From Candidatus Eisenbacteria bacterium (GTDB lineage: Bacteria > Eisenbacteria > RBG-16-71-46), in the NCBI GenBank assembly GCA_013140805.1, contig JABFRW010000086.1, positions 1 through 46,021 of the forward strand: DNA of 46,021 nucleotides, given 5' to 3'. This document shows positions 19,907 to 43,400 of this stretch, in pieces (the first letter of the stretch is position 1; every line of letters starts with the position of its first letter). Both the position numbers and the translations under genes were made by a program. The notes below the pieces were generated by a model, which did no database searches, was not told the origin of the DNA, and was given only the letters and a program-made list of their open reading frames with translations.

Positions 19907-20792
19907 CTTCCGAAGGCCCCACTCCCGTTACGCCGAGGCCCGCTGCAACGACACGACTTGCGTCATCGTGACTCCCGTTACAGTGACGGGAGTCCGTAAC
20001 GGGAGGCACGGAGCTCTCGACGAGTGATCGAATCTCGTCGGCGAGCACGCTCGCTGGCGTCCAGATTCTGCTCGGTCCGCCCCACTCCTTCGCGAGGAGG
20101 TCACGGACCTTGCCCTCCCGTGAGCGACCGGCCTCATCGAGCACGAGGACCAAGTCGAACGACGTCCAGTCGAGAAAACTCGGGCGCGCGACGCGCGCTT
20201 CGTCGAGAAGGCGAACCTTGCGCCGGAGCACTTCCAGCGACTCCGTACCGCGATCCAATTCCACCGCGAGACAGACGCGGCGCTCCTGCCCGTCCGATTC
20301 GCAGGCAAGTTCAATGAGCGCGTCAGGAACCACACCGAGGCCGACGGCAGCACCTGCACGAACCTCCCAGTCAGGCACGCATCGTGTGAGTCGCACGTCA
20401 GGAAGCAGGTGGAGGGCTGACGCGATGCTCGTCCAGAGCCGGACGATGCCGAGGTGATGCGGCCACGGCTGGCGCGGCACCGCTCGGGCGGTCGCGCCCG
20501 CGGTCCGCGTCCAGGCGATGCCGGCCGGTCCCAGCGAGTAGATATTTTCCGCAGCGCGATCGAGCACGTGCGCCTGAACGAAGCCGGCATCGAAGAGCGC
20601 CCGCAGGCGAGCGGCGAGCACGTCACGGTGCTGACCGGGAAAGAACAGGCGCCCCAGGTCGCTCGATCGAGCGATCCGAAACCGCCCGAGCGCTCGCAGA
20701 AGCGCGGCATCGCGCACGGTGAGCCGCACCTTCCCCCCGCCGCGACGACGATCGCGCGGCTGACGCTTGCGCGATCGCGCGTCTACGTCCAT
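19899..20792 (-). CDS. Replication-relaxation (Replic_Relax) family winged-helix protein
   Basis: The 297-residue protein starts at ATG 20792 (MDVDARSRKRQ), overlapping the upstream zinc-ribbon gene by ten bases. After a basic leader it has the Replic_Relax signature VRLTVRDAALLRALGRFRIARSSDLGRLFFPG, followed by a winged helix (DVLAARLRALFDAGFVQAHVL). An alpha/beta domain with CLAVELDRGTESLEVLRRKVRLL and FDLVLVLDEAGRSREGKVRDLL resembles a nuclease-like fold in outline. Members occur on plasmids and integrative elements and are linked to plasmid replication or mobilisation; their biochemical role is poorly defined. The acidic C-terminal tail is Val/Gly-rich. An upstream ATG at 20861 would place 69 more bases inside the neighbour and is less likely. 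Confidence 0.82.
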   Translation of the reverse strand: MDVDARSRKRQPRDRRRGGGKVRLTVRDAALLRALGRFRIARSSDLGRLFFPGQHRDVLAARLRALFDAGFVQAHVLDRAAENIYSLGPAGIAWTRTAGATARAVPRQPWPHHLGIVRLWTSIASALHLLPDVRLTRCVPDWEVRAGAAVGLGVVPDALIELACESDGQERRVCLAVELDRGTESLEVLRRKVRLLDEARVARPSFLDWTSFDLVLVLDEAGRSREGKVRDLLAKEWGGPSRIWTPASVLADEIRSLVESSVPPVTDSRHCNGSHDDASRVVAAGLGVTGVGPSEDE

Positions 20793-21109
20793 GGGTTCGC
20801 CACTGCCACACAGCACTTCGGGCATGGCGTCCACGCCGGCCGCGATCCACACAGACGGCATGACCGGAAGAGATACCCTTCACTCGTCCCGCGGCAGCTC
20901 GAGCACCGATACACGCCGTAAAGCGGGACACGATGGCCACGCGGACACCGCGTCGTCTCGGCGAATAGCGTCCGGGCGCGCGTAGCGAACACTCCGACGC
21001 GCCAGAGCACACGCGCGCCAAGCCAGATCGTGACCGCGACCCAACCGAGCACACGTAGCACGTCTTTGATGAAAGATCCGACCTTCCGAGCATCACCGAG
21101 GAGATTCAT
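20783..21109 (-). CDS. Small membrane protein with tandem zinc ribbons
   Basis: This 108-residue protein has one hydrophobic helix (residues about 17-42, VLRVLGWVAVTIWLGARVLW) and a cytosolic C-terminus with four cysteine pairs or near-pairs: CPRGH, CSSC, CRLC and CPKC. It ends in VAVANPWT. The Cys pattern predicts two zinc ribbons in tandem. It sits between the ATPase gene (three bases upstream) and the replication-relaxation gene (ten-base overlap), so all three are probably made together. I infer a membrane adaptor role for the ATPase; no named family is recognised with certainty. Confidence 0.75.
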   Translation of the reverse strand: MNLLGDARKVGSFIKDVLRVLGWVAVTIWLGARVLWRVGVFATRARTLFAETTRCPRGHRVPLYGVYRCSSCRGTSEGYLFRSCRLCGSRPAWTPCPKCCVAVANPWT

Positions 21110-21112
21110 CGC

Positions 21113-22660
21113 TCATCCGAGGGCCGGGAACGGCCCCTCCTCGGGCTCGGTGTCGGTCGAGAGCGCGGTGCTGTGCGTCTGCGACTCCGACAAGCGCGCC
21201 TTCGACACGACCGCCTCGGCCCGCGGAACCGCGGCGATGCCGCGGCGGATCGCCAGCCGCGCCTCCGGCGAGAGCGACTCTCCCGCCGCGCGAAAGCGGT
21301 CGAAGTCGATTCGCGGCGCAAGCGCGAGCTGGGCCGTCTGTCCTATGTCGCGGACGGCGATGTAGCAGTGCCGCTGCGGTAGCCGAGTGAGGCAATTGAT
21401 GAGCGTTCGGCGCGCGGTCTCGCCTTCCGCTTGCTGCGGTAGCAGGTGGGCGAAGGCGGCCGCATCCTCGGGGCTCGAACGAAATTGAACCTGCAGTCCG
21501 ACGTTCGCCCGCAAGGCCGCAACCAAGCCTGGGTCCACCGCGCTCAGCTGTGATCGACTCTGTCCGGTCACCCAGACGGCGGCGCGCTTGAAGCGCGCGA
21601 TCGCCAGTAGCCGACCGAACTGCCGCGCCTCCTCTGGCCCGAGGTTCTCCTGAATCTCCTCGGCCACGAAGAGTGCTGGCAGCGTGTCGGGCCTCACCTC
21701 GCGGCTCAGGATCGCGCGGACGACTTTGCCGAGCAGAAGTGCGCCGAAGAAGCGCGCCAACCGCTCGGCCCCCGCCGGCGGCGAGCCGGTGCTGATGACG
21801 GTGAGGCCGGGCTCGGCGAGCGCGTCACTGAAGGAGATCGAGCCCGGCGCGCACAGTGCCTGCCGCGCGCCAGGCCAGAGAAACAGCGCGTTGAGCCGTG
21901 CGCCGAGTGCTCGGAGCGACTCCTTGCTCTCCTGCTGGAATCCGACGCGAGCGTACTCGCGGAGCGACTCGTCCTCAGATTGCTGAGCGGCCCGGAGAAA
22001 ATTTGCGGGGGCGGCCAGCCACTCCGAGACCTGGGTCAACGGCCACCGCTTCTCGATGCAGAGGGTCACGAGCCGCACGAGGACGTGATGCATGCGTCCA
22101 CCGAGCGGCTCGGCCAAGGCCTGCTCGACCGCCGCGGCGACGCCGAACGCCTGCGCCTCGCGCGGCACGCCAGCCTCCGGGTGGGTGACGTTCAACAGCG
22201 GCACGAATTCGTGGTCGAACACGCGAACGACGCGCAAGCGCGCGAGCAGTGCTTCGCCACCTTCAACCTCGAGCACGTACGGCACGAGAAGCTCGAGCAC
22301 TTGATCCGCAGTCTCGCCCTTGAAGTCGGCAACGAGCAGCGGAAATTCGCCCCGAGTGAGCAGCTGGGTGAGGACTCCGAAGAGCCAGCTGCTCTTGCCG
22401 GTTCCGGTCCCGCCGCTGATGGCCGCGTGCATCCCAAGCAGCCGCTTCGTCGGGAGACCGATCCACTGCCACCGGCCGCGGCCATCCGGCATCGTCGCGA
22501 GTACGACCTTGCCCGGTCCGGGTGATGTGGCAAGCGCTCGCATGAAAGCGCGTCGATCGCGAGCCACCGGATCGATCAATCTCGACTGCCACCGCCGAGC
22601 GAGTGACGCTTCGGGCCCGACCAGCCACCGCTGCGCGAGGCGCAAGGCCCAGTCACTCAT
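21113..22660 (-). CDS. VirD4/FtsK-like conjugative coupling ATPase
   Basis: The 515-residue P-loop ATPase has Walker A GGTGTGKSS at residues 83-91 and a Walker B region LPALFVAEEIQE around 327-338. VWVTGQSRSQLSAV then matches the sensor region of TraG/VirD4/HerA-type DNA pumps. PLLVADFKGETADQVLELLVPY follows the P-loop as in the family. There is no clear transmembrane segment at the N-terminus (residues 1-70), unlike classical VirD4. The neighbouring small membrane proteins on both sides could supply the membrane anchor. The start overlaps the stop of the upstream membrane-protein gene (ATGA). The likely role is to move element DNA during transfer or to act as an element-encoded DNA pump; no relaxase is seen nearby. 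Confidence 0.82.
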   Translation of the reverse strand: MSDWALRLAQRWLVGPEASLARRWQSRLIDPVARDRRAFMRALATSPGPGKVVLATMPDGRGRWQWIGLPTKRLLGMHAAISGGTGTGKSSWLFGVLTQLLTRGEFPLLVADFKGETADQVLELLVPYVLEVEGGEALLARLRVVRVFDHEFVPLLNVTHPEAGVPREAQAFGVAAAVEQALAEPLGGRMHHVLVRLVTLCIEKRWPLTQVSEWLAAPANFLRAAQQSEDESLREYARVGFQQESKESLRALGARLNALFLWPGARQALCAPGSISFSDALAEPGLTVISTGSPPAGAERLARFFGALLLGKVVRAILSREVRPDTLPALFVAEEIQENLGPEEARQFGRLLAIARFKRAAVWVTGQSRSQLSAVDPGLVAALRANVGLQVQFRSSPEDAAAFAHLLPQQAEGETARRTLINCLTRLPQRHCYIAVRDIGQTAQLALAPRIDFDRFRAAGESLSPEARLAIRRGIAAVPRAEAVVSKARLSESQTHSTALSTDTEPEEGPFPALG

Positions 22661-27946: not shown

Positions 27947-28190
27947 CTAGTGCCCCGACAGCACCGCGACCTTCTTCGTCTCAACCCACCCGCCGGCCTA
28001 AATTCGACAGACGTACATGCCCGCTTCCACAGGCCGGCCACCGAACGCCTTCCGATCCCATGTCACCGTGTGCACTCCCGCCGGGAGTTCCTGATCAACT
28101 GGGATCGCCACGCGACGCCGAGCAGGTCCAACACTGGTTGGCCATCGACTGACTTGGTACCTCGGCTCAGCTCGTATCCGGATGGCGGAG
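27947..28190 (-). pseudogene. Decayed FlgD-like / T9SS C-terminal sorting domain
   Basis: Read in successive frames on the minus strand, the remains of one FlgD-like C-terminal domain appear in order. First is YELSRGTKS and VLDLLG in one frame (from about 28176). Next is RRVAIPVDQELPAGVHTVTWD and FGGRPVEAGMYVCRI in another (from about 28117). An in-frame TAG (27998-28000) is followed by AGGWVETKKVAVLSGH and a final TAG (27947-27949). The pieces match the usual order of such domains in FCB bacteria (RRVA, GxHTVTWD, GRPVxxGxYxCR, ETKKV). At least one frameshift and one nonsense codon have accumulated, so this is a pseudogene whose upstream part is gone or replaced. Confidence 0.75.
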
Positions 28191-28314
28191 ATCGAGGTCG
28201 GCACAGGCCCAGTCTTGCATGACCTCCTGCGGCTTGATCCGCGCGAGCTGCTCCGAAGACCCGTTGTAGCCTTCCTGAGTCAGGTAGCGAATGCAGGCGA
28301 TCCAATGCGGAAGT

Positions 28315-28785
28315 CTATCGGCGCCGGACAAGGCGCTCTTGGAGTGTCCAGCGAATCCGCCGAATACTCCCCTCCGCAGGCTGACGTGCCTGTTGCATTC
28401 GCCCGATGGCCTCGTCAAGAACTAGTAGTTGGCTCGAATCCACGGATACCGAGTCGAGGTCGACCATCTCCTCAAGTCCGGTGACGAGGTCAAGTCTCGC
28501 ATAGTCGCTTGAATCTGTCGCGATCGCCTCCACGAGATAGGGAACTATCGAATCCCCCGAAGCTCTTAATATTTCCACCGGCGACTGAGAAGGGTGGGTG
28601 AGATTTCGCGCAAGTCGAAACAATCGCACTCGCTCCCTCATGGGCATGCGCAACGCGTAGGCGATTTGCTCTGATCTCGATTTGTGAAGATAGGCGCTAT
28701 CTTCAGGGCTCGGCTTCGGATCGCAAGAGCACGATACTGACATCAAGCAGAGCGCGCCGACCACAACATACCTATTCACAGTCAC
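28315..28785 (-). CDS. Small exported (possible lipo-)protein overlapping the RHS gene end
   Basis: The 156-residue protein has a signal sequence MTVNRYVVVGALCLMSVSCSC with possible lipidation cysteines at 19 and 21, although the lipobox is not canonical. Helical repeats follow (RVRLFRLARNLTHPS, GDSIVPYLVEAIATDSSDYARLDLVTGLEEMV), resembling short HEAT-like repeats. Its ATG lies 14 bases inside the 3' end of the RHS gene, so the two are translationally coupled. Genes in this position next to polymorphic RHS toxins often encode immunity proteins; an exported immunity protein would fit a toxin acting in the periplasm. This is inference. Base composition is less GC-rich than the core. Confidence 0.6.
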   Translation of the reverse strand: MTVNRYVVVGALCLMSVSCSCDPKPSPEDSAYLHKSRSEQIAYALRMPMRERVRLFRLARNLTHPSQSPVEILRASGDSIVPYLVEAIATDSSDYARLDLVTGLEEMVDLDSVSVDSSQLLVLDEAIGRMQQARQPAEGSIRRIRWTLQERLVRRR

Positions 28786-31700
28786 CCTCCGGGCATGGGT
28801 CGCGATCGCCGTACTCCGCCCTCAATCCCTCGCGGATAACCCGCTCATAAGCCCGCGCTTCTCTTTCAAACCCAATTTGCAGATATGCCTCATCGTGACC
28901 CAATCCTGCAAGCTGCCCCTTCAGATAGTCAGTCGTGTATCGAGTCATGAACCCTATCACCCCGAAGTGTTGGAACTGCCTCGTATGTGCCACTTCGTGG
29001 CCAATCAGCGCAAGTCCTCTTGAACTAAATGGATCGTACGCTCCTGGCGCAAAATACACTGAACTACCGAGCGTGATCGCGCTCGCGCCATCAGGCGGGT
29101 GACTATTCGGGAACAATTGCACGCTACCAAGGTCGAAGCCCGGAAAGTAGGCGGCCAGAATACCCCTTGCACAATCGGGTATTGGCATTAACCCGTCAGG
29201 GTCAACGTGGTTGATCGGCTCCGAAGCGCAGTATTGCTGAAGGTTGGGACTTCCGGCCGCGAATAGCACTGGGTCTCGCCTAGTCCAGCGTCCCACTCGA
29301 GGATCGTAGTCCCGCGCCCCGAACCGCGCGAGCCCACTAGTCGCATCCCACAGCCCGCCCGCATAGCCGAAGCACTGGAATCCGGGGTTGGTGTCAGTGA
29401 TCAGACGCCCATAGCCATCGTAGTCCATGCGCTCTGCGATCCAGCCACTTGTGGCGTTGACGACCAGGCGCACCGATCCCAGGTGATCAGAGACGATCCG
29501 GTAGGTAGTGTCGCCCTTGATCATGAGGTCGGGCACGTGGCTCTTGGTGGCGTACACGTAGCGGACCAATAGGCTATCCGAGCCGTTGAGTTCCGCGACC
29601 GGCTCGAGCTGGTCTTGGTACAGCCACTTGCGCGTCACCACGCCATTCCACTTGCGCGCAACCCGGCGGTTTCGGCCGTCCACCAGGTAGTTCAAGCTAT
29701 CAGTGCTCTGGAATCGAATCTTGATCAGGTTGCCGAGCGGATCGTAGGTGAAGCGCGTGGTGTCGGTGCCGGTGATCGAAGTCGCGAGTTCACCCGAGGC
29801 GGTGTAAGTGTAGCGAGTGTCTTTGTAGCGGAGCTGGCGATCCTGATCGTCGTCGTTGAGCGCGCTCGCTGAATCCCCGGGGGAATTGAACTGGGAGCGA
29901 TTGCCGTTGCCGTCGTAGGCGTAAAGCTCGGTTACGGTGCCGGCGGTGGATACCGATTTCAAGAACCCTGTGTCGGAGTAAGCGTAGACGTATGCCGTGG
30001 TGGTGCCGAGTACGGATTCTGAGATGCCGGTTATGCGGCCGAGGCCGTCCCGGGTGTAGGAGGCCTTCCACAGCGTGTCCGAGCCTCGTGCAAGTGCGGA
30101 GACCAACGGCTCACCAAAGCCGTTGTACGCCTCAACGGAGGCAATCGTGGAGCTGGCGAGAGTCGTGCCAGTCATGAGTCCATTGTCGGCGTCGCGGGCA
30201 ATCGTGAGCGGACCGGCGCGGGTCACGAGCCCGTCATCGTCATAGCCGTAGATCATCGGACTTCCGGCATTCACGCGCTGGCTTGAGACCCGGAAGTCGC
30301 GATTAAGCGACACAGACACACTGCCTGTGACCGCCCCGCTCCAGGTCGTCACCGTGTCGGCCGGGCCGTCGTAACCGAATGCCAGGGTCACGCCATCGGG
30401 CGAAGTGACTCCCGACAGCAAGCCGCTTGCACTCGAGTAGCTTAGGTTCAGCGTCCCGCGCGGAATCGCGATCGACTCGAGGCGGCCGTTCGAGCTGCCG
30501 TAGATGAGCGTCACGTTGCTACTGTCTGGGCGTAGGATGCGAAACACCTGCTCATCGCTATTGTATAGGTACTGCGTGAGCGAAGCTGCCAGGCCAGCGG
30601 CGGGCGGGCGGTACTTATCAGTCAGATTCACTGCGGTGTAGTCGAACTCATGGGCCGGGCGCCCCGGAGGCGCAACGCTGGTGAGATTCCCGACAGCGTC
30701 GTAGTCGAATGCGATCGATCGGCCACCGGGCATGGTCTGACTCGTCAGGCGATCGGCATTGTCGTATCCGAATGTCGTCATGCGACCTAGAGTGTCGCGC
30801 AGAACCGACAGTCGGCCACTCGCATCGTAGCTGAAACGAACACCGCGGCCCGCCTGAGCGATGACGGAGTCACGTCCACGCTGGTCATACTTGAAGGTTA
30901 TCGGTTCCAAACCCGGAATCGTGACCATCAGTGGGCGCCCGGCGCTATCCACCGTTGCGGTGGCGGTGCGACCCTCGGCGGAAGTCAGTGTCAGCTCGCG
31001 AGTCGAAGAGTTGAACTCGGTCGTAGCCGCTGTTCGGTCGTTTATTTCAAAGGAGCTTGAGACGGTCCCGTGTGTCGTTGGTGGGTCGAAACCGCCGCTG
31101 TACGTTCGCGAAGCCTCACTCGTGCGCGCGATGCCGCTCGGGAGCTTCTCAGTTGTGAGGCGTGGCATGGGTCTCAGCATTCCGAATCGCGGCTCGCGAC
31201 CAAGGCTGTCGACCATCAGGAGTCCGCTGGGCGCCCACCGCCTGATCTTCGCGTCCGCGCTATCGCTCTGGTAGGTCAGCAGTCCGTTCGTGCCGATCAC
31301 GCGATGCTGCCTGCTGCCGTCGAACAGGTCGGTCACCGAGAACTTGCTGACCCGCGCCATTCCGGTTGTGCGCGTTACCTCCCGCGTGGTGCCTGAGAAT
31401 ACCGTGCTGAGAGCCTGACTTCCGCCCGCCGGATCGGCCTCAGAATCAAGTCGACCGTCCTCCGCGTTGAACGAATACGTGTGCTCCCGGTCCAGCGCAT
31501 CCTTCGCCTTTGTTAGGAGGCCATTTGTTCCAAAGGTCAGTGTGAAGGGTTCGCCTGCCGGATTCGTCACTGTCTTGAGGAACCCGTTCTCAAGAGTGAG
31601 GTCGGTTTCCTGCCCGAAGGGTCCCGTGATCATCGTGGGAACGCCACTTGATCGCGTAACCGTCGTCGCATCGCCGTTCATGTCGTGGATGGAACTCAAC

Positions 31701-34700
31701 CGACCGCCTCCGTCATAGGCAAAGCGGTATCGAACGGCGCCCGTTAGCGCGTCACGCGTCCGAAGATGACGGCCATTGAGACTGAAAAAGTAGATCTCAG
31801 ATCCGTCTTCACTCGTGACACTGAACTCGTCAATGCTTTCCCCGCGCTCGGAGGCACCGATTCGCCGCACTCCGCCTTGTGCGAGAAAGAGACTGCCGTC
31901 GGGCGCGCTCGCGATTCCGTACGAGACGGCCAAGTGCGCCCCAAGCGCCGGAATGCCGTCGGCAAGGTACTCCGACGCGCCCGGTCCGCCGCCCGCGATT
32001 ACAGTCAGCGTTCCATCCGGATCCAGTCGGTGTACTCGCTTGATGAGGGTCGGGTTGTCGGGGCCGGAGGCGATGTAGACCGCACCGTCCGGAGCCGCTA
32101 CTAGGTCGTAGGGCCAAAACGACGAAGTCACATTGTCTAGTAGCGTGACCATGGAGCCGTCGGGCGCAACCTTGCGCACTCGGAGACTTCCCGCCTCCGC
32201 GATGAACAGATTGCCCGCTGCATCGCACGCCAATCCACTGGGGGCGCCAATCGCGGTGGAGTCCGCTCGGCCGCTGGTTGCGGTGCTTGCCTCAACGCCG
32301 GTGCCTGCATATCTGTCGATGTACCCGTCGGGCCCGATCCTCCGAACGGAGTAAGTCTCGCGGTCGCCCACAAAGATGCTGCCATCTGGCCCGATCGCGA
32401 TGGCGCTCGGCACGCTGAACCCGCATGTGTCGGCTCGCCCTCCATCGCCATAGTTCACACCCGCGTGGCGTGTACCATCGCCAGCGATGCTGCGCACATA
32501 GCCGTCTGTCCCAATGCGTATCACTCGCTGGCAGTTGTTGGAAGCCTCGGTGTCCATAACAAAATAGACACTGCCGTCCCGCGCAACCGTCAATTGACGC
32601 GCGCCGGTCAAATACGTATCGGTGCCGAGCACGCCGTCGCTGTATGAGCCCGACGTTGACTTGCCAGCGATAATGGCAATGAACACACCCTTGCTGGACC
32701 ACTTCACGATCGCGTTGCCGGACGACGTGTAGATTGCCCCGTCTGGGCCAATGGCGACATCATTGGCGTTGATGGACGTCCCCGGAATGACCGTAGTAAT
32801 GACGGGGTAGGTGCGCTCGCCAAGATCCACACGACCATCGCCATAGTAGAGAGTGCCGCGACCAGTGACGTCATAGAAGTGATGCGGACTGATCGTCCAT
32901 CCGCCGAGCCCCGCCGAACCCGCTCCTGGGGCCCCCAGACTCACTCGTCGCCTGCTCCAGCTTATCCACCGCTCTGAGCGATCGCCGCTTGCGAGCCCCA
33001 AGAACGCACCCCGAGCCCCCGCCGCATTGAACGACGGCCCGCCTCGACCACCAGCGCCGGCGCGCCAGTTTGGAGCAGATCGATACCCGACAGCGACGAG
33101 TGCTTCGATTGCGCCCTGCACTAGGCGACCAAATACGTCGCGTCCGTCCCATTTGATTTCAGCGATCTTGTTTTTCAGGGTTGACGCATTGCCGGTGAAG
33201 CTCTGCTCGAGGCGCTGGCCGGCGACTTCAAGACGCGTGATGATTTGCGAGACATTCGGAGGCACCGAGTCGCCACTGACCTGAATTCTGAGCGTCCTCA
33301 TGGCGACGTCGCCGGGCATGCGAAAGCTACGATAGTGCAAGCTGTACGGCGTGCCGACGATCGGTACCTCCTCACCTAGAACGCGGTTCTCAACTTCGAT
33401 GACACACCCATGGCACAGGCTCGGATTCTCAGCAAGCTCCATGGGTTGTCCCGCCCGGCCGGCGGCAAAGGACTGTTGCGCGGCGGCCTGATCGACGTTC
33501 ACATTGTCATCGGGCGTGCTGAAGTGATCGTGCACAGCTCGCCAGAGCGTGTCGCCGACGGCGAATTCCTGGGCGAGCACGATCAGTTCGTCGGCGCTGA
33601 TTCCAAGCGAATCAAGTCTACCGGATCCGTCGGCCAGGCCGTTTCCGTCGCTATCGATCGTCGCGCTGCCACCTGATGTCGAGAGAATCGCCAAGACATA
33701 AGCATCCTTGCCCGCCTTCCACTGGCCTGACCAAGGGTCGTATGTCCCGACTGGGACTGCTGTACCGACAGGGAAGTGCAGAAAATTGCGGACATATCGG
33801 CTCACTGGCTTTGAAAAGACCACGCCTGGCTCGGGTTCGCCAGGGATCCACAAGGTGTCGGACTCATCGAGGCGAAGGTCGACGCAATACGTGTAGGCCG
33901 TCGTCGGGGGAAGTGCGCCTGGCATGGCGTTCTCCCCGTCCGCGCCGACCGTGTATTCCGTGATCCGCACTCCGACCTTGGTATTACTCAGCGTGACCGT
34001 ATCGCCCGGAGCTCGGCCAATCTTGACCGTGGTCCCGGCCTGAAAGAACAAGCGCACGTTGCGATCGCCATTCGCGTCCGTCTTGAAGCGACTGCGAACC
34101 ATCTGGTTGAGAGCGAGATTCACCTCTGATCGGACGGCAGTGCGACCGATGAGCGCCACTGTGTCGAGAATGGCGTACTCATTCCATCCAGGCGTCACGG
34201 AGCGCTGACTCTCGAGATGGCCATCGCGGTTGAACCGAACGGTGAGTTGCCCACCACCGTTCACAAGCATGTCGAAGCGGCCATTCCCGCGTGTCTTCGT
34301 CATCCCATATTCAGGGTGACCGAGGATGCGAACGTTTACGTTTGCGAGTGGCCCGAAGTCGCGACTCTTTACGTAACCGTGCAGGACCGCCATCCTTTCA
34401 GGATCGAGGACGGTCGTATCGATGTCGGTCTGGAGCGGAGGCGAGGCGGCGTAGAGGAATCGCACCTGATCCTTGAAGGAACTGACGATGGTGGGGTCGA
34501 GCGCCGAAGGAGCGACCCCCATGGTATCCGCCTCAACCGTGAGTTTGCGGAAGACCATCCACGTAAGTTGGGTCTTGTTGCCCGCGGCGTCTCGTGCGCG
34601 GATCGTGATGCGGTTCGAACCGAGGTCGAGCAGCACCGTATCGGCGAATGATCCACCAAACCCGGTGCCGACTGTGTCGTCCTCGATCGTGACGACGGTT

Positions 34701-36016
34701 CTCGTTGTGTCTGGCCCCCACGTACCCGAAACGGGGAAAAGCGAATCGGTGACCGTTTGCGCGGTCGGAAACGGGCTCGCAACCGTAAGCGCGGGCGCCT
34801 GAGTATCGCGCCACACAGTTCGAGTCGTCGCAGTCGACAAACTCGCGCTGTTCAACGTCGTGATCGTCAGTGGGTACTTGCCATCGCTCGCCATCGGGAC
34901 GATGTCAGTCAACGTGTCCGGGGCTACGAACGCCGGGCGACTGTTGACTCTCATGGTTCCATACGTCTCATCCGTTACGACCGCAGAGACTTCGATCTGC
35001 GAAGCGGTCGTCACCAACGAGTCGACAGGCCCGAGCCACGTCACGATCGGAGCGGTGTTATCCGTTACGCGGAACCGCACGCTGTCGAGATAAGTGCCGG
35101 AACCGCTCTGGTTGTAGAAGTCGATCCGATTGGTGTCAGCGAGCGTCACCGTCTTAGTCACGGTCGCTACGCCCGTGCCCAAGTCCGCGGCCGACATCAC
35201 CTGCGTGCCGTTGATTGACAGCGTCGCATTGCTCACGCGGTTCGAGCCGTCGGGACCACCGTTGTATAGCCGCACTTGGTAGGGCGATGTGCCGGTGGCG
35301 AGGTTGAACGTGTCGAGCTGGTGCACCGACGAACCCGGCTTGGTGTAGCGCTTGGGTCCAAACACCACGTAGGTCGGATCGTTGACTCGCACGATCCGGA
35401 AGTGGACGAATGTGCCACTCGTGCCTTTGAGCATGACCGTGATCGTGTTCTCACCCGTGACCGGCTCGAAGATACGGGTGATGCTCGGGGTGCTGGTACC
35501 GCACTCACTTGAGCCCACGAACTCGCGCCCTTGAATGTCGACGATCACCTGGCTCACCCGGTTGGTGCCGTTGGTGTTGCCGTTGGTGAAGTCGATCAGG
35601 TACCGATGACCACGGATTGAGTCAGGGGTGAACGCATCCTCGAACACCGTCCAGGTCGAGGACCCGCCAGTCTTGGTGTACTTGGTGACCGCGAACACCA
35701 CCACGGTGTCGAGCGACAGAATGCTCTGGAGTTCGGGGTGACGATCGCCGGACTGACCGTTGCTTGGCAGTTCGGCCTTGGGGGTTTCGTGCGGGGCCTG
35801 GCGCCCCGCAGCGCCGCGTAGCACATCGAGCACGCTCCGCTTTGCGGCGTCAGCGCCGAGTGGCGCGCCACCATTGCCCGCGAGCCCCATGAGCACCAGA
35901 GCAGCCAGTAGCGCCGAAGCAGCAACCCGGCGAACGACTCGCGGCGACTGTCGTGGCGGAGGAATTCGCATTGGCACGTCGTGATCGGTTGTCGTGGACT
36001 CGGGTTCCTTGCTCAT
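28772..36016 (-). CDS. Giant RHS/YD-repeat protein with NHL propeller and HExxH tip domain
   Basis: The 2414-residue secreted protein has a signal/anchor segment at about residues 29-47. Residues 104-210 and 216-318 form a repeated beta domain (VSQVIVDIQGREFV and VSNATLSINGTQVM with TNRV/SNRV). Ig-like and carboxypeptidase-regulatory-like modules follow. An NHL-type propeller (IAIGPDGSIFVGD, IAAPDGAVYIASG patterns) spans roughly 32840-31800. YD repeats run to the RHS core end, with GSVRLVVN, CFGYAGGLWDATSGLARFGARDYDP and NHVDPDGL. The last 139 residues are the variable tip: SSVYFAPGAYDP, HEVAHTRQFQHFG (HExxH at 2340-2344) and a downstream EREARAYE. This resembles the DUF4157 (eCIS-core) metallopeptidase. 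Its ATG overlaps the propeller gene stop (ATGA). The overall order is teneurin-like; protease activity of the tip is inferred. Confidence 0.85.
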   Translation of the reverse strand: MSKEPESTTTDHDVPMRIPPPRQSPRVVRRVAASALLAALVLMGLAGNGGAPLGADAAKRSVLDVLRGAAGRQAPHETPKAELPSNGQSGDRHPELQSILSLDTVVVFAVTKYTKTGGSSTWTVFEDAFTPDSIRGHRYLIDFTNGNTNGTNRVSQVIVDIQGREFVGSSECGTSTPSITRIFEPVTGENTITVMLKGTSGTFVHFRIVRVNDPTYVVFGPKRYTKPGSSVHQLDTFNLATGTSPYQVRLYNGGPDGSNRVSNATLSINGTQVMSAADLGTGVATVTKTVTLADTNRIDFYNQSGSGTYLDSVRFRVTDNTAPIVTWLGPVDSLVTTASQIEVSAVVTDETYGTMRVNSRPAFVAPDTLTDIVPMASDGKYPLTITTLNSASLSTATTRTVWRDTQAPALTVASPFPTAQTVTDSLFPVSGTWGPDTTRTVVTIEDDTVGTGFGGSFADTVLLDLGSNRITIRARDAAGNKTQLTWMVFRKLTVEADTMGVAPSALDPTIVSSFKDQVRFLYAASPPLQTDIDTTVLDPERMAVLHGYVKSRDFGPLANVNVRILGHPEYGMTKTRGNGRFDMLVNGGGQLTVRFNRDGHLESQRSVTPGWNEYAILDTVALIGRTAVRSEVNLALNQMVRSRFKTDANGDRNVRLFFQAGTTVKIGRAPGDTVTLSNTKVGVRITEYTVGADGENAMPGALPPTTAYTYCVDLRLDESDTLWIPGEPEPGVVFSKPVSRYVRNFLHFPVGTAVPVGTYDPWSGQWKAGKDAYVLAILSTSGGSATIDSDGNGLADGSGRLDSLGISADELIVLAQEFAVGDTLWRAVHDHFSTPDDNVNVDQAAAQQSFAAGRAGQPMELAENPSLCHGCVIEVENRVLGEEVPIVGTPYSLHYRSFRMPGDVAMRTLRIQVSGDSVPPNVSQIITRLEVAGQRLEQSFTGNASTLKNKIAEIKWDGRDVFGRLVQGAIEALVAVGYRSAPNWRAGAGGRGGPSFNAAGARGAFLGLASGDRSERWISWSRRRVSLGAPGAGSAGLGGWTISPHHFYDVTGRGTLYYGDGRVDLGERTYPVITTVIPGTSINANDVAIGPDGAIYTSSGNAIVKWSSKGVFIAIIAGKSTSGSYSDGVLGTDTYLTGARQLTVARDGSVYFVMDTEASNNCQRVIRIGTDGYVRSIAGDGTRHAGVNYGDGGRADTCGFSVPSAIAIGPDGSIFVGDRETYSVRRIGPDGYIDRYAGTGVEASTATSGRADSTAIGAPSGLACDAAGNLFIAEAGSLRVRKVAPDGSMVTLLDNVTSSFWPYDLVAAPDGAVYIASGPDNPTLIKRVHRLDPDGTLTVIAGGGPGASEYLADGIPALGAHLAVSYGIASAPDGSLFLAQGGVRRIGASERGESIDEFSVTSEDGSEIYFFSLNGRHLRTRDALTGAVRYRFAYDGGGRLSSIHDMNGDATTVTRSSGVPTMITGPFGQETDLTLENGFLKTVTNPAGEPFTLTFGTNGLLTKAKDALDREHTYSFNAEDGRLDSEADPAGGSQALSTVFSGTTREVTRTTGMARVSKFSVTDLFDGSRQHRVIGTNGLLTYQSDSADAKIRRWAPSGLLMVDSLGREPRFGMLRPMPRLTTEKLPSGIARTSEASRTYSGGFDPPTTHGTVSSSFEINDRTAATTEFNSSTRELTLTSAEGRTATATVDSAGRPLMVTIPGLEPITFKYDQRGRDSVIAQAGRGVRFSYDASGRLSVLRDTLGRMTTFGYDNADRLTSQTMPGGRSIAFDYDAVGNLTSVAPPGRPAHEFDYTAVNLTDKYRPPAAGLAASLTQYLYNSDEQVFRILRPDSSNVTLIYGSSNGRLESIAIPRGTLNLSYSSASGLLSGVTSPDGVTLAFGYDGPADTVTTWSGAVTGSVSVSLNRDFRVSSQRVNAGSPMIYGYDDDGLVTRAGPLTIARDADNGLMTGTTLASSTIASVEAYNGFGEPLVSALARGSDTLWKASYTRDGLGRITGISESVLGTTTAYVYAYSDTGFLKSVSTAGTVTELYAYDGNGNRSQFNSPGDSASALNDDDQDRQLRYKDTRYTYTASGELATSITGTDTTRFTYDPLGNLIKIRFQSTDSLNYLVDGRNRRVARKWNGVVTRKWLYQDQLEPVAELNGSDSLLVRYVYATKSHVPDLMIKGDTTYRIVSDHLGSVRLVVNATSGWIAERMDYDGYGRLITDTNPGFQCFGYAGGLWDATSGLARFGARDYDPRVGRWTRRDPVLFAAGSPNLQQYCASEPINHVDPDGLMPIPDCARGILAAYFPGFDLGSVQLFPNSHPPDGASAITLGSSVYFAPGAYDPFSSRGLALIGHEVAHTRQFQHFGVIGFMTRYTTDYLKGQLAGLGHDEAYLQIGFEREARAYERVIREGLRAEYGDRDPCPEGDCE

Positions 36017-38022
36017 CGGACCAGCACCACTTTGCGAGAGAGGGTGCGTGAGCCCTGGGTAAGTCTCACGAAGTAGACACCGGTGCGCGTGCCACTGGCC
36101 GGGCGGATCTCGGCCGAGCGCTGCCCCGGGAGGTACTCGGCCAGCGTCCGGCTTGCCACCCGTCGGCCGGCCACATCAATCAGTTCGAGGCGAGGCGCAG
36201 GGCCGCGAGGCAAGGCGAACTCGATCCGAATCACGTCCGATCCGGGTGGACTCCAAGCGCGTTGAAGTGCCAGTTCAAGCGGCGTGACCGGCACCTGCAC
36301 GCGAATCGGCGTGAGGAACCGCTCCTCCTCGCCGATTGAGACCGACAGGCTGTAGCCGACCTCTCGACCTTCGGGTGCTTGCGCATCCTCCATCGCAATC
36401 TGACCACGGCCGTCGGGGATGAGCGTTGCGAGTTCTCGCAGTTCGCCCCCCTCTTCGATCCGGTAGGCGCGATAGGTCGCTGGGGTCTTGCGGTCAACGC
36501 TCCAGGTGAAGCGCACCCGACCGGGATCGATCGAAGTCTCGATCAACTGGGGCCGTATGACGCTTTGACCGGCGAGCAACAGCGAACCGCCGGCGGGCTG
36601 GTTCGCGGTATCGACCCAGGTGACGATCGCGCCGCCATTTCCATCGGGCGCGAGAGCCGGAGCAAACTGTTCGCCTGAGGCCACGCACACCGCGAACCCC
36701 TGCTCGGGCCAGCTAGCATGACGACTTCCCGCGGCCGCCACTCGTTGGGCAAAGATGTCGCCGTCGTCGTCGAGTCGGCGGTCAACCCAGGCGACTGTGG
36801 CACCACCGTCGCCGTCGGCAAGGATTGCTGGCGCGTCGAAGCCGACGGGGCCCGCACAGAGCGCCGCCCCGTTGGCTGGCCAGCCAGGCGCTACGGCCGC
36901 GCCTGCAATCAGCCGCACGAGACGAACGGATTCGTTACCAGCGCCACGCTCGCTCCACCCAATGAGCGCGCCCGCGCCGTCAGCGAGCATCGTCGGCGGG
37001 CCAACCATTGTGCCAGTGGCGAGCAATCGTGGGCTCTCAAGCGCGTGCAGCGGTGGCTGACTCACATTCACCGTCGCGGCCAGCAGTCGTGCCGCTTCAA
37101 GACTTTCCTCACGCCACACGAGCAACAGCTCATCGTTGGCGAGTCGAAGCGTCCTGAGGAGGGTCACTTGGAACTCAGGTGCGCCAACCACTAGTTCTGC
37201 ACCCTCGGCTGGCCAAGCCCCATCGCGCGTGCCACTGGCCGAAACGCGCTGTGCCCGCACTCCGAGCCGGCGTCCAGAGCGTTCGAGCCACACGAGCACC
37301 GCTCCGCCCGTGCCGTCCGACATGATCTGCGGATGTGCCTGCTCCGACCCACTCTCCGAAACGCGCAAGCCACCCGCGGGCCACTCCTGAGTCAGGGTTC
37401 CGGCGCCAGTCAGCCGAGTGACGTAGATGGCGCTCGTTTGCGCCCCGCGATGCTCCTGCCAAGCGACGAACACCCCGCCCGCTCCATCGCTGCACAGAGA
37501 CGGATACTCACGCGCGCCAGCGAAGTCTGCGACTGAAGTCGCGTCGATGCTCCAGCCCTCGGCGACGGATCCGCCACTCGTCAGGCGCTGGACGAGGACG
37601 TCGGGCTCGCTTCGGCGCGAGGCCGTCCATGCCACGAAGATGCCGCCGTTGCCATCGGACACGGCGTGACGCGCAAGGCCATGTGGGGAGCCCGTGCAGT
37701 CCCGCGTCGAGTCCGGCACCCAGGCGGAGTCGAGCATCGCCGAGCCGAGGATCCGCTGAGCACGCACTTCGAACGGTGTGCCGGTGCGTAGATCGGTGCA
37801 GTTGGCGGGCTTGCCGCGACTACTCGTATCGCCCGGCGCGAGCACACTTCGGTCTGGAAGGCTCGGCTGGGAGTTGCGCGGCTGGCTGGACGAGTTCGCG
37901 GGAATTGCCGCGAACAGCTGCAATGCGAGCGCGCCGAATGAGATAAACCATGCGAGCGAGGGTGCGGTGGGAACAAACAGGCCAAGCAGTAGCCGGCGGG
38001 CAGTGCGTCGAGTGGAGTCCAT
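36013..38022 (-). CDS. Secreted propeller protein with T9SS-type C-terminal sorting domain
   Basis: The 669-residue protein has an N-terminal hydrophobic signal (RLLLGLFVPTAPSLAWFISFGALALQL). About six DGxGGxxVxW repeats form a likely beta-propeller: SDGNGGIFVAW, SDGAGGVFVAW, SDGTGGAVLVW, ADGAGALIGW, ADGDGGATVAW and PDGNGGAIVTW. A fibronectin-like segment follows, then a C-terminal sorting-type domain (RLELIDVAGRRVASRTL, GVYFVRLTQGSRTLSRKVVLVR). That ending is typical of type IX secretion cargo or FlgD-like domains in FCB bacteria. Its stop overlaps the RHS start, so it is the first gene of an operon with the RHS protein. A role as carrier or surface partner of the RHS protein is possible but unproven. 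Confidence 0.8.
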   Translation of the reverse strand: MDSTRRTARRLLLGLFVPTAPSLAWFISFGALALQLFAAIPANSSSQPRNSQPSLPDRSVLAPGDTSSRGKPANCTDLRTGTPFEVRAQRILGSAMLDSAWVPDSTRDCTGSPHGLARHAVSDGNGGIFVAWTASRRSEPDVLVQRLTSGGSVAEGWSIDATSVADFAGAREYPSLCSDGAGGVFVAWQEHRGAQTSAIYVTRLTGAGTLTQEWPAGGLRVSESGSEQAHPQIMSDGTGGAVLVWLERSGRRLGVRAQRVSASGTRDGAWPAEGAELVVGAPEFQVTLLRTLRLANDELLLVWREESLEAARLLAATVNVSQPPLHALESPRLLATGTMVGPPTMLADGAGALIGWSERGAGNESVRLVRLIAGAAVAPGWPANGAALCAGPVGFDAPAILADGDGGATVAWVDRRLDDDGDIFAQRVAAAGSRHASWPEQGFAVCVASGEQFAPALAPDGNGGAIVTWVDTANQPAGGSLLLAGQSVIRPQLIETSIDPGRVRFTWSVDRKTPATYRAYRIEEGGELRELATLIPDGRGQIAMEDAQAPEGREVGYSLSVSIGEEERFLTPIRVQVPVTPLELALQRAWSPPGSDVIRIEFALPRGPAPRLELIDVAGRRVASRTLAEYLPGQRSAEIRPASGTRTGVYFVRLTQGSRTLSRKVVLVR

Positions 38023-38225: not shown

Positions 38226-38981
38226 CTATTGGCAGGCCGTTGGATTCGACGTCCGCCAGGTCACACAGCTGAACGCGTACGTCCCACCATCCGGATCGGG
38301 TCGTCGGCCGTTGATGACGATCGTGTAGTAACCGACCGGGTCGCCCGAACACTCGGGATAGATGCAGGACACATCGCGAAAGACATACGGTACTCCGGCG
38401 CGCAGGAGAAGTGGCGGCGCGTAGTTTGGATCGTAGCCACACCCAGAACTTGCCCCACCCGGCCAGATGTGGAATGCGGTGACCAGGAGGTCCTCAGTAG
38501 GCGTCACTTGGAGTGCGAACCCTGGGCAGTTTGGATTGGTCGGCGCGACCGGAAAGAGCGCGATCGTGGGCGTGTTGAGATTGCGGATGTACACACCGGC
38601 GGTTCCTTCGGCGCTCCCACCGTGACCGTCGCTCACGGTCACGAAGATCGTGTCACGGCCCCACCCCGACGTGGCGACGTAGGTGGCCGTCGTCGCAGTC
38701 GGCCCACTCGAGTTGACGGTGCCGTACTTGGCCCGCCAGCTGAGGGTCAGTTGGTCGCCGTCAGGATCCGCGGGCGTAGCCGTCAACTGAGCGGTCTGAC
38801 CAGGGTTGAAGACGGTTTGGCTGATGTTGAGGTTGACCGTTGGCGCGTGATTGCCTCCGCCCCCACCGCCAGGTGGTGCAGTCGGACCGTCACTTCCGCC
38901 TCCACAGCCGAAGGCGATGGAGACGAGAAGGAAAGCGGAGAGTGGCATCAGCAGTCGCGAAAAGTGCCGCTTCGGAGTCAT
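38226..38981 (-). CDS. Lipoprotein with Ig/PKD-like domain
   Basis: The 251-residue protein starts at ATG 38981, with AAGGAG about seven bases upstream. The signal peptide ends in a lipobox (LLVSIAFGC). A Gly/Pro linker leads to an Ig/PKD-type domain (APTVNLNISQTVFNPGQTAQLTATPADPDGDQLTLSWRAKYG, then DTIFVTVSDGHGGSAEG). A Cys-rich C-terminal beta domain has six cysteines and the motif YYTIVINGRRPDPDGGTY. It is likely anchored in the envelope. The ATG overlaps the stop of the short recombinase (ATGA), an odd pairing. Function unknown; it may bind a ligand or surface sugar. Confidence 0.72.
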   Translation of the reverse strand: MTPKRHFSRLLMPLSAFLLVSIAFGCGGGSDGPTAPPGGGGGGNHAPTVNLNISQTVFNPGQTAQLTATPADPDGDQLTLSWRAKYGTVNSSGPTATTATYVATSGWGRDTIFVTVSDGHGGSAEGTAGVYIRNLNTPTIALFPVAPTNPNCPGFALQVTPTEDLLVTAFHIWPGGASSGCGYDPNYAPPLLLRAGVPYVFRDVSCIYPECSGDPVGYYTIVINGRRPDPDGGTYAFSCVTWRTSNPTACQ

Positions 38982-39622
38982 AGCGTTGCTCCTTCTGCGG
39001 GGGCAGTTGGTGGGGCGGAGGAAGGCGAGATGGGTCGCGCGGGTTGAACGATCCACGGCGAACGCTCGAGCTTCTTGAACAGCGCTTCGCGATGGCGGTC
39101 GGTGATGCGGGCGTAGATCGCGGTCGAGCGGATGTTCCGATGACCCAGGTGGTCCTGGACGAACTCCAGTGACGCTCCGGCATCGAGCAGATGCGTGGCG
39201 ATTGAGTGGCGGAGTGAATGCGTGGTGATGTGTCTCGGTAGCTGGGCGAGATCGCGATAGCGGACGAAGCGGAGCTGAATCTGCCGACGCTGGAGCGGCC
39301 CCGCGCGGCCGACGAACAGCGGCTCGTCCGGCGTGCCGAAGGTTTGGGTCGTATGCGCGCGCAAGAGCGCGGCCGTGCCGGCGAAGAGGATCTGCTCACT
39401 CCAAACGCCGCCCTTGAGGCGCCGAACAAGAAGCCGACCACGACCTAGGTCCACGTCCGCTCGCCGTAGCAGGAGGACTTCGCCGACTCGGAGCCCGTGG
39501 TGATACATGAGGGTGAAGAGCGCGCGGTCGCGGGGATTCGCGATCACCGCGAAGAAGCGCTCGACTTCGGGCTGCGTGAGATACCTAGGCGGGAGTTGAT
39601 GAGGGTGCGGAAGAATGGACAA
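38978..39622 (-). CDS. Short XerC/D-type tyrosine recombinase (catalytic domain only)
   Basis: The 214-residue protein contains the entire catalytic set: Arg45 (HHGLRVGEVLLLRRADVD), Lys70 (RRLKGG), His135 and Arg138 (HSLRHS), His161 (GHRN) and Tyr170 (IYARI). The core-binding N-terminal domain of normal XerC/D proteins is absent, so it is about 80-90 residues shorter at the front. The TTG start at 39622 has no strong ribosome binding site, and no missing domain is visible upstream. It may be a truncated gene or one of the known small recombinases. The stop overlaps the lipoprotein start by four bases. Confidence 0.7.
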   Translation of the reverse strand: MSILPHPHQLPPRYLTQPEVERFFAVIANPRDRALFTLMYHHGLRVGEVLLLRRADVDLGRGRLLVRRLKGGVWSEQILFAGTAALLRAHTTQTFGTPDEPLFVGRAGPLQRRQIQLRFVRYRDLAQLPRHITTHSLRHSIATHLLDAGASLEFVQDHLGHRNIRSTAIYARITDRHREALFKKLERSPWIVQPARPISPSSAPPTAPAEGATL

Positions 39623-39809
39623 GGGGAGCGTGGTGAATTGCTCGACGGCCCCGCCACTGCGCGTACTAGCAGAAACGCGCAGTGGGCGCCGAGGACGCGA
39701 GATTCGGCGGGAGGTCTAGTTGGGCAGGGCGGCCACGAAGCCATCCACTGGCTTGCGGGCCGGCTCAGACGCAGCAGAATTCAGGGGGAAATGTGCCGCG
39801 GAGCTTGGG

Positions 39810-39837
39810 AGTGCGCGCTTCTGCTAGAAGGCGCACT
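39810..39837. terminator. Hairpin downstream of the DUF2726-like gene
   Basis: AGTGCGC and GCGCACT (39810-39816, 39831-39837) pair, and CTTCT/AGAAG extend the stem with a one-base bulge and three-base loop. It lies about 60 bases beyond the stop of the minus-strand gene at 39896. No T-run is present. The surrounding 273-base gap between 39623 and 39895 holds no other feature I can support. Confidence 0.4.
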
Positions 39838-41777: not shown

Positions 41778-43400
41778 CTAGAAGCCGCGCTCGAATCGGT
41801 TACAGATCTCGTTCCAAATTGCCTCGGCGAGTTCATCACCGGTGAGCCGATACGTGTCGCCCAAGTTTGGAAGCAGGCTCATGTTGTGCAGGACAATGAG
41901 GGGCAAGCCGCGCTCACGATCCCACTCGACGGTCCCGGTGGCATTCACGCCGTTTGAGCTCATCCGGGAGGCCCCAATCGAGAAACAGATGGTGTTGTCG
42001 CCCCAATCTCCACCGATCCAAACGTCGAGGCCGTAGACCGACGCTCCCGACCGCATGATCCGCAGCATAAAGCGGCCATTTCGATCCTGCGTGTGCACGC
42101 CGAAGCCACGGCCCTCGAGTTCTGCCGTCCGTCGCTCGAGGCCGGATCTCAGTAACCGAACCGCCACTTCGGTCTCAGCGTATGGATTGAAGTCCGACGG
42201 CGGCAAGGCGCGCAGTCGCGGCGATACCTCGGAGGGAAGTGGCGCCGACGCCGTCTCGCCCGTCAGCCGCTGAAGGATCGCTCTTGCCACTTCGTCGGGA
42301 GTCAGCTTGACGCCATCGAGATAGTGGATCGTAGGGCGAAGGCCGGGTAACTCGGTCTGGTCGAATCGAACCGGCAATATGTAGGGCTCGACGGATTGCA
42401 CCGCGGTGGCCAGCGCGCTCCGAAATTCGTGCTGAGGCCAAGCCTTGCTCGCATAGGCCGCCGACACAAACGGCACGACGAATCGGGCGCTAGAGCGATA
42501 GACCGTATCGAAACGCACGGCGAGATCGTGGCCCCACAACGCGACTGCTTCGAACTCGTCGAAAAACACGCTTGCGCCTCCCGCGCGCAGTGATTCCGCG
42601 ACGCGTTGTACGTAGGCGCGCTGTTCGCCTGCGAATGAGAGCGCTACGTCGTAATTTGACGTCGTCACTGTTGGCTCCGTCGTTGTGATGCGCGATCGTC
42701 GAAGTACCCGTTTGCGTCTGCGAGGAGTCGGCCGAAGCTGAGTCAGGCTCGCGCTTGGAACTGCGCCCTTGGTCGGGACCACGGAAGCCGCCGGCAACTC
42801 GTAGCGCTGCCCACATTGAAAGCACTTAAGTGCACTCGGCCGCGCAAGTAGGTGGAGTCGGTAGCGCGCGCCACAGCTCCAGCACGCGAAGGGTAGGCCA
42901 GCCGGTCGAAGGCCGGAGTTGTCGGCCGAGACAAGGCCAATGATGCCGCCGATAAGCGTGCCCGCTCCACTGGCCCTGGTGAGCACCGCCCCGGCGCCAG
43001 CGCCAGTGAGCGCGCGACCGAGCAGCTCGGAGTCGTCGTACGACTGCGCCACCGTGCGAACGAACTCAGAAATGTCCGAAGTGCGATCGGAACAGATGAC
43101 CAGGTGCTCAAGTCCCGAACAGCGAAGGGTTCCGTGAGCGGCATCCTCCGCGGCGCTGAAAATCCAGACGGGTGTGCCGGTCAGGCGACCGAGGAGCCAC
43201 GACAGTCGCTCGCGCCATGTCGGGGACGCCTCCGCCGCCTTCGTGTGAGCCACCAGAACTGCCGCTGGCGTCGGTGTCGGTTCCCACGAAGTGTTTGTGC
43301 AGGACATGTCGCGCGTCAGCGGCATCTGGTCCAGTCCCAGCCAGATGGTAGCCGCGAGTGGTTCGGACTCGGAGACGCTAGCGATCGTGATTCTGGCCAT
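41778..43400 (-). CDS. TIR-domain protein with internal zinc ribbon (candidate defence protein)
   Basis: The 540-residue protein starts at ATG 43400, with TAGGA five bases upstream. Residues 1-160 are an unrecognised domain with a Gly-rich helix (AGAGAVLTRASGAGTLIGG). Four Cys (173, 176, 193, 196) form a zinc ribbon. Residues 249-380 are a TIR domain: YDVALSFAGEQRAYVQRVAESL, VFFDEFEAVALWGHDLAVRF and FVVPFVSAAYASKAWPQHEFRSAL. Glu325 in WPQHEF sits at the catalytic glutamate of TIR NADases. The last 150 residues form an unknown beta-rich domain. Bacterial TIR proteins often deplete NAD+ upon phage sensing, so abortive defence is a reasonable inference. It leads an operon with two small genes. 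Confidence 0.8.
   Translation of the reverse strand: MARITIASVSESEPLAATIWLGLDQMPLTRDMSCTNTSWEPTPTPAAVLVAHTKAAEASPTWRERLSWLLGRLTGTPVWIFSAAEDAAHGTLRCSGLEHLVICSDRTSDISEFVRTVAQSYDDSELLGRALTGAGAGAVLTRASGAGTLIGGIIGLVSADNSGLRPAGLPFACWSCGARYRLHLLARPSALKCFQCGQRYELPAASVVPTKGAVPSASLTQLRPTPRRRKRVLRRSRITTTEPTVTTSNYDVALSFAGEQRAYVQRVAESLRAGGASVFFDEFEAVALWGHDLAVRFDTVYRSSARFVVPFVSAAYASKAWPQHEFRSALATAVQSVEPYILPVRFDQTELPGLRPTIHYLDGVKLTPDEVARAILQRLTGETASAPLPSEVSPRLRALPPSDFNPYAETEVAVRLLRSGLERRTAELEGRGFGVHTQDRNGRFMLRIMRSGASVYGLDVWIGGDWGDNTICFSIGASRMSSNGVNATGTVEWDRERGLPLIVLHNMSLLPNLGDTYRLTGDELAEAIWNEICNRFERGF

What the first reader, a model, noticed from the sequence alone, without database searches (positions are those of the whole stretch)
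28315..36016. RHS protein with a DUF4157-like HExxH tip, translationally coupled to an exported small protein
The 139-residue tip after the RHS core end (NHVDPDGL) carries SSVYFAPGAYDP and HEVAHTRQFQ, resembling the eCIS-core DUF4157 metallopeptidase, rather than a nuclease or deaminase. The next gene starts 14 bases inside the RHS end and encodes a signal-bearing 156-residue protein, in the place of an immunity gene. Family knowledge: RHS tips are delivered toxins with adjacent immunity genes. Inference: a protease effector acting outside the cytosol, countered by an exported immunity protein.
Basis: partly seen in the sequence, partly recalled or inferred. Interest (0 to 1): 0.75.

Follow-up and report, generated by a model that had tools for sequence, protein, structure and literature searches.

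The report
Teneurin-like toxin with zinc-peptidase tip
This bacterial gene encodes a giant exported shell protein of the same family as the brain receptors called teneurins; its swappable end is a predicted zinc-dependent protein-cutting toxin, and the small gene overlapping it probably makes the exported protein that protects the producer, a combination expected from known systems rather than a new kind.

Summary
The minus-strand gene 28772-36016 encodes a 2414-residue RHS protein. Its C-terminal tip matches eCIS_core/DUF4157 (PF13699, E=2.9e-10), with the whole HExxHxxQ...E signature. With a family alignment the tip folds confidently (pLDDT 92), and the best PDB fold matches are small zinc peptidases, though weak (E>=0.04).

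The body is a bacterial teneurin-like protein (BiTLP 9PT5, E=6e-246). The alignment ends at the known RHS autocleavage point, which would release residues 2277-2414. Seven such genes occur in the phylum, all in one family. All seven overlap by 4 nt an upstream partner gene. Bodies are 33-51% identical; tips differ after the DPxG motif. The only two loci sharing a tip also share the downstream gene. One sibling tip is TseH-like, followed by a membrane-anchored small protein.

Best explanation: a self-released zinc-peptidase toxin acting in the envelope of neighbouring bacteria, neutralised by the exported 154/156-residue protein. Toxicity, substrate and immunity are untested, and no relative of the immunity candidate was found. 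RHS-fused DUF4157 toxins, periplasmic DUF4157 effector/immunity pairs and teneurin-like toxins are all published, so this is a new member of a known kind. The constant partner gene and a linked recombinase are the less expected parts.

The parts
28772..36016 (-). Teneurin-like RHS/YD-repeat protein, 2414 aa
   Evidence: translation; TTR_TEN, TEN_NHL and TEN_YD-shell domains, BiTLP 9PT5 E=5.8e-246
35843..35928 (-). Probable export signal of the teneurin-like protein (residues ~30-58)
   Evidence: by inspection; equivalent hydrophobic N-termini in all seven homologues; no signal-peptide program was available
34154..34405 (-). TTR_TEN domain (residues 538-621)
   Evidence: PF25020 E=2.6e-22;
33404..33406 (-). 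Cys871 (HG|CVIE): position of the FN-plug autocleavage serine of BiTLP (S724)
   Evidence: alignment to 9PT5; Ser in three and Cys in four of the seven family members; paper PMC13018210
31868..32278 (-). Teneurin NHL domain (best stretch, residues 1247-1383)
   Evidence: PF25021 E=7.4e-15
29189..30829 (-). YD shell and RHS-associated core (residues ~1730-2276) with R2235, D2248 and D2272 at the spacing of the BiTLP aspartyl autocleavage residues
   Evidence: PF25023, PF05593, TIGR03696; residue spacing
28775..29188 (-). Tip released by predicted autocleavage: DUF4157/eCIS_core-type zinc peptidase domain (residues 2277-2414)
   Evidence: PF13699 E=2.9e-10; AlphaFold pLDDT 92.1, pTM 0.86; zinc-peptidase fold matches, weak
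28985..28999 (-). HEVAH (H2340-H2344), zinc-binding and catalytic motif
   Evidence: invariant in all DUF4157 relatives aligned
28865..28867 (-). E2384 (FEREA), candidate third zinc ligand
   Evidence: Glu invariant; lies in the later helix of the model
28315..28785 (-). Candidate exported immunity protein, 156 aa (154 aa if the GTG at 28779 is used)
   Evidence: start-codon argument; signal and lipoprotein pattern; no family in Pfam, NCBIfam, PHROGs or PADLOC
28786..28790 (-). GGAGG Shine-Dalgarno-like motif, 6 nt before the GTG at 28779
   Evidence: sequence
36013..38022 (-). Upstream partner, 669 aa, propeller-like repeats and weak T9SS-type C-terminal tail; its stop overlaps the teneurin-like start by 4 nt (ATGA)
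   Evidence: TIGR04183 E=9e-5, 22.3 bits against a cut-off of 23; same order and 4-nt overlap in 7 of 7 loci

Best explanation
28772-36016 encodes an exported bacterial teneurin-like polymorphic toxin. Its YD shell is predicted to cleave its own chain after L2276 and release a 138-residue DUF4157-type zinc peptidase. That peptidase is proposed to cut proteins in the cell envelope of competing bacteria. The overlapping downstream gene makes a small exported, possibly lipid-anchored protein that neutralises the peptidase in the producer's own envelope. Shown by sequence: domain architecture, catalytic motifs, gene coupling, and swapping of tips together with downstream genes. Inferred: peptidase activity, toxicity, envelope target, immunity function. 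The delivery route is unknown; the T9SS-tailed partner encoded upstream is a candidate anchor or carrier.
For: Carrier: 9PT5 match E=5.8e-246, ending at the position where the BiTLP chain is cleaved, and R/D/D autocleavage residues at identical spacing. Tip: PF13699 E=2.9e-10, complete HExxHxxQ...E signature, phrog_15610 'protease' E=1.2e-5 spanning the motif and E2384, confident model, best PDB fold matches all small zinc peptidases. Only about 12 residues follow the last helix of the model, so there is no further toxin to release. Polymorphism: bodies 33-51% identical, similarity lost after DPxG. G028 and G022 C391 share a tip (E=8e-11) and a downstream gene (E=1e-13) although the G028 body is closest to G000. 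Envelope: signal on the small protein; sibling TseH-like tip (PF25218, E=6e-14) with a membrane-anchored overlapping gene, TseH/TsiH being a peptidoglycan hydrolase and periplasmic immunity pair; VgrG2b/PA0261 precedent; teneurin-like immunity genes shown experimentally elsewhere.
Against: No relative of the small protein was found anywhere searched, so its role rests on position and signal alone. The fold matches are individually weak (best PDB E=0.04; VgrG2b 6H56 not among the 50 PDB matches listed; profile match to it only E=2). The model relies on an alignment of HExxH proteins: without it pLDDT was 39. In the phylum's other genomes only canonical eCIS-type domains resemble the tip. VgrG2b itself has no proven substrate.
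Confidence: 0.68

Rival explanations
1. The tip is a zinc peptidase, but it works as a processing or maturation enzyme for this protein or its partner and is not a toxin; the small downstream protein is a regulator or lipoprotein chaperone.
For: Most DUF4157 domains are thought to be self-processing peptidases in eCIS effectors.
Against: Those sit N-terminal to a toxin; this one is at the extreme C-terminus with nothing after it. The RHS core already has its own aspartyl cleavage site. Siblings carry unrelated domains in the same place, one of them TseH-like.
Confidence: 0.12
2. The tip is a catalytically dead or non-peptidase DUF4157-derived module used for binding or adhesion, and the protein acts as a surface adhesin like animal teneurins.
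For: Animal teneurins are adhesion receptors. Substrates of DUF4157 toxins are not established.
Against: All zinc-site residues are kept. The autocleavage residues lost in animals are present. Tips and downstream genes turn over together.
Confidence: 0.07
3. A real toxin, but the overlapping small gene is not its immunity factor; protection comes from the shell or from lack of the target.
For: No homologue of the small protein exists in anything searched. Many eCIS-type toxins lack immunity genes.
Against: Translational coupling with a good ribosome-binding site; a small same-strand ORF overlaps or directly follows the stop in most siblings examined; the only repeated tip comes with a repeated downstream gene. 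In tested teneurin-like proteins the shell did not protect and the downstream gene did.
Confidence: 0.13

Closest known systems
Bacterial teneurin-like proteins (BiTLP and relatives; Raoelijaona et al. 2026, PMC13018210)
   Different: The constant coupled upstream partner (7 of 7 loci) and a T9SS context are not mentioned in that paper's main text (terms searched). That survey reported six phyla; the window's phylum is not named by the tools, so whether it is a seventh is open. FN-plug cleavage residue is Cys in four of seven.
PVC-metallopeptidase / eCIS_core (DUF4157) as a C-terminal toxin of RHS proteins (Zhang et al. 2012, PMC3482391)
   Same: HExxHxxQ...E domain at the extreme C-terminus behind RHS repeats.
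   Different: That example (Pedosphaera) was a prediction from architecture; here the carrier is teneurin-like and an exported candidate immunity gene is coupled.
VgrG2b-PA0261 / Tpe1-Tpi1 periplasmic metallopeptidase effector-immunity pairs (PMC6899460)
   Same: DUF4157-annotated gluzincin toxin, small downstream immunity gene with signal peptide or lipobox.
   Different: Delivered by T6SS; here no T6SS domain in the carrier. Immunity protein not detectably related to anything; fold match to 6H56 not obtained.
WapA and T6SS Rhs polymorphic toxins
   Same: YD shell, DPxG cleavage, exchangeable tips.
   Different: Different carriers and secretion; the body here is of the teneurin type.

Membership tests
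Bacterial teneurin-like protein (TLP) | Teneurin superfold domains: NHL and YD shell | tested here: met
   PF25021 E=7.4e-15, PF25023 E=4.7e-30; 9PT5 E=5.8e-246
Bacterial teneurin-like protein (TLP) | FN-plug domain | tested here: met
   Pfam match only E=0.07, but the region aligns continuously with BiTLP (residues 497-1080, 314 bits)
Bacterial teneurin-like protein (TLP) | TTR domain and TIP insertion | tested here: inconclusive
   TTR_TEN PF25020 E=2.6e-22. No TIP model is available; the ~290 residues between TTR and FN plug align with BiTLP
Bacterial teneurin-like protein (TLP) | Aspartyl autocleavage motif (R...D...DPxG) before the C-terminal domain | tested here: met
   R2235, D2248, D2272 at the same spacing as R2103, D2116, D2140 of BiTLP
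Bacterial teneurin-like protein (TLP) | Polymorphic C-terminal domain with a downstream immunity gene | tested here: met
   Different tips in homologues; shared tip goes with shared downstream gene. Immunity function itself not testable here
DUF4157 / PVC-metallopeptidase (PF13699) | Profile match above curated cut-off | tested here: met
   40.6 bits against 22; covers profile positions 37-75 of 79
DUF4157 / PVC-metallopeptidase (PF13699) | HExxHxxQ...E signature and three-strand/three-helix zincin fold | tested here: met
   All signature residues invariant; model with strands at 25-27, 38-41, 44-47 and main helices at 57-94 and 107-127, pLDDT 92
eCIS effector | Contractile sheath genes in the genome, DUF4157 N-terminal to a toxin | tested here: not met
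   No PF04984 match in the 96%-complete genome; domain is C-terminal
Tpe/VgrG2b-type periplasmic metallopeptidase effector-immunity pair | Zinc peptidase tip with adjacent exported immunity candidate | tested here: met
Tpe/VgrG2b-type periplasmic metallopeptidase effector-immunity pair | T6SS delivery | tested here: not met
   No VgrG or PAAR domain in the protein; T6SS genes elsewhere in the genome were not searched separately
Tpe/VgrG2b-type periplasmic metallopeptidase effector-immunity pair | Periplasmic toxicity dependent on HExxH and blocked by immunity protein | not testable with these tools
   Needs expression experiments
T9SS cargo (upstream partner) | Por secretion tail and T9SS translocon in the genome | tested here: inconclusive
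   TIGR04183 just below cut-off (22.3 against 23); SprA present at 458 bits

The most novel reading that the evidence does not exclude
The constant upstream partner, a protein with a T9SS-type tail that overlaps every teneurin-like gene in this family, is the anchor or delivery factor. That would make this a T9SS-linked route for displaying teneurin-like toxins. A small tyrosine recombinase linked to three of the seven modules would spread or rearrange them.
Probability: 0.15. Interest if true: 0.7.

Novelty: new member of a known kind. Interest (0 to 1): 0.45.

Why it matters
If right, it links three separately described things in one locus: the bacterial relatives of animal teneurins, DUF4157 peptidases used as toxins, and an exported immunity protein. 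It gives a small, testable peptidase/immunity pair (138 and 154 aa). The constant coupled partner gene offers a handle on how teneurin-like toxins are displayed or delivered, which is unknown. The Ser/Cys choice at the FN-plug cleavage position is a clue to that cleavage chemistry.

Tried and rejected
Single-sequence fold of the tip: pLDDT 39, discarded. Sequence search of the tip against PDB: no meaningful hit; a profile of tip plus relatives reached BepA and, weakly (E=2), VgrG2b 6H56. Relatives of the small protein in 47 genomes, plasmids and viral contigs: none; a leucine-rich PDB match at E=0.004 was judged compositional. Tip relatives in phages: none. Genome-contig scan with the tip found one canonical N-terminal eCIS effector only. 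eCIS delivery rejected: no sheath. Considered and rejected that the recombinase sites form an array around the toxin module: good copies occur only as the pair beside the recombinase.

Full report
OBSERVATION. The genes are on the minus strand. The RHS ORF is 28772-36016 (2414 aa), the downstream ORF 28315-28785 (156 aa) and the upstream ORF 36013-38022 (669 aa). The tip alone matches PF13699 eCIS_core (formerly DUF4157) at E=2.9e-10, 40.6 bits against a curated cut-off of 22. It is the only such match in the 3.8-Mb genome, and that genome has one RHS-core gene. The GTG at 28785 abuts the GGAGG at 28790-28786, whereas the GTG at 28779 follows it by 6 nt; the latter is the likelier start (154 aa, 8-base overlap).

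WHAT THE CARRIER IS. Pfam finds TTR_TEN1-4 (2.6e-22), TEN_NHL (7.4e-15) and TEN_YD-shell (4.7e-30). Against the PDB the protein matches the Bacillus teneurin-like protein BiTLP (9PT5/9IFO) at E=5.8e-246, continuously over residues 497-1080 and again to 2276-2279. In the published structure the density ends after L2144 at an aspartyl autocleavage site using R2103, D2116 and D2140 (PMC13018210). The window protein has R2235, D2248 and D2272 at the same spacing, with L2276 equivalent to L2144. The second BiTLP cleavage site, before S724 in the FN plug, aligns with G870-C871; across the seven family members this residue is Ser in three and Cys in four. It is therefore a teneurin-like protein, and cleavage would release residues 2277-2414.

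THE TIP. The signature of the family is HExxHxxQ...E (PMC3482391). H2340, E2341, H2344, Q2347 and E2384 are invariant in an alignment with nine relatives from five phyla. Relatives with a matching 'RYxxD' stretch after the motif were found in viral contigs and plasmids as free proteins, some with signal-like N-termini. AlphaFold with an alignment of 14 sequences, all from the window or fetched loci, gave pLDDT 92.1 and pTM 0.86; without the alignment it gave 38.8, so the model depends on that alignment. HExxH lies in helix 57-94 and E2384 (residue 109 of the model) in helix 107-127. The best PDB fold matches are all zinc peptidases (Grifola zinc peptidase, abylysin, selecase, jannalysin), but with E of 0.04 to 0.5. 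Among viral models, a DUF4157 protein fits at 2.0 A over 80 columns. VgrG2b (6H56) was not among the PDB matches listed.

POLYMORPHISM AND THE DOWNSTREAM GENE. The phylum has 47 held genomes. Seven clear teneurin-like genes occur, all in the window's family. Bodies are 33-51% identical and similarity disappears after the DPxG motif. Tips: DUF4157-like in the window; TseH-like (PF25218, E=6.3e-14) in G021 C3; others without a family; one copy runs off its contig. The only shared tip (G028 and G022 C391, E=8e-11) comes with a shared downstream gene (E=1e-13), although the G028 body is nearest to the window's body, 51% against 42%. A tip and its downstream gene thus move together and apart from the body. 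A partial second core with another tip lies behind the G021 C3 gene, like orphan toxin modules of Rhs loci (the comparison is from general knowledge).

COMPARTMENT. The window's small protein has a hydrophobic N-terminus and a lipoprotein-type pattern, as does the G021 C21 one. The gene after the TseH-like tip begins with a membrane segment. The pair shared by G028 and G022 has none. TseH degrades peptidoglycan and its immunity protein TsiH is periplasmic (PMC7721734). VgrG2b's DUF4157-type domain is toxic in the periplasm and not in the cytoplasm, needs its catalytic residues and is neutralised by PA0261, whose export signal is required; homologous immunity proteins can be lipoproteins (PMC6899460). 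For another teneurin-like protein the downstream gene was shown to bind and neutralise the C-terminal toxin. These facts make an envelope-acting peptidase with an exported immunity protein the best reading, but each functional step in the window itself is inference.

PARTNER GENE AND DELIVERY. In all seven loci the teneurin-like gene can start with ATGA or GTGA on the stop of an upstream gene of the same family (27-33% identity to the window's where compared), and every protein then has a hydrophobic, signal-like N-terminus. The window's upstream protein has a T9SS-type tail just under cut-off and belongs to a family with many members in these genomes. The genome encodes SprA, the T9SS translocon (458 bits), and no PF04984 contractile sheath. 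Whether the partner anchors or delivers the toxin is unknown.

NOVELTY. RHS-fused DUF4157 toxins (2012), DUF4157 periplasmic effector/immunity pairs (2019) and teneurin-like toxins with immunity genes (2026) are published. The locus joins them and is a new member of known kinds. The constant partner gene and the linked recombinase are the parts that a specialist might not expect.

Noticed in passing
window 38978-39622 (-), sites 39658-39681 and 39812-39835: A 214-aa tyrosine recombinase (catalytic domain only) about 1 kb before the operon, preceded by two inverted 24-nt near-palindromic sites 130 nt apart. The phylum has five close copies (E<=1e-50); three lie within about 2 kb of a teneurin-like module (window, G021 C3, G021 C21), each with the same site pair; the copy in G021 C21 contains one stop.
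   Followed up: partly
L024:11031-11978: A partial RHS core with its own tip directly behind the G021 C3 teneurin-like gene and its small gene, resembling an orphan or displaced toxin module.
   Followed up: no
L024:3013-10677 tip and 10674-10976: TseH-like (PF25218) C-terminal domain on a teneurin-like protein, with an overlapping 100-aa membrane-anchored protein.
   Followed up: partly
residue 871 (window 33404-33406) and homologues: FN-plug cleavage position is Ser in three and Cys in four of seven teneurin-like proteins of this family.
   Followed up: no
window 27950-28260: Downstream of the small gene, readable remnants of what looks like a decayed T9SS-tail gene (by inspection).
   Followed up: no
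window 18309-22660: Integrase, Replic_Relax-type and HerA-like ATPase genes: a possible mobile or plasmid-like element in the same contig.
   Followed up: no
window 41778-43400: 540-aa protein with a TIR domain (PF13676, E=3e-16), possibly a defence gene.
   Followed up: no
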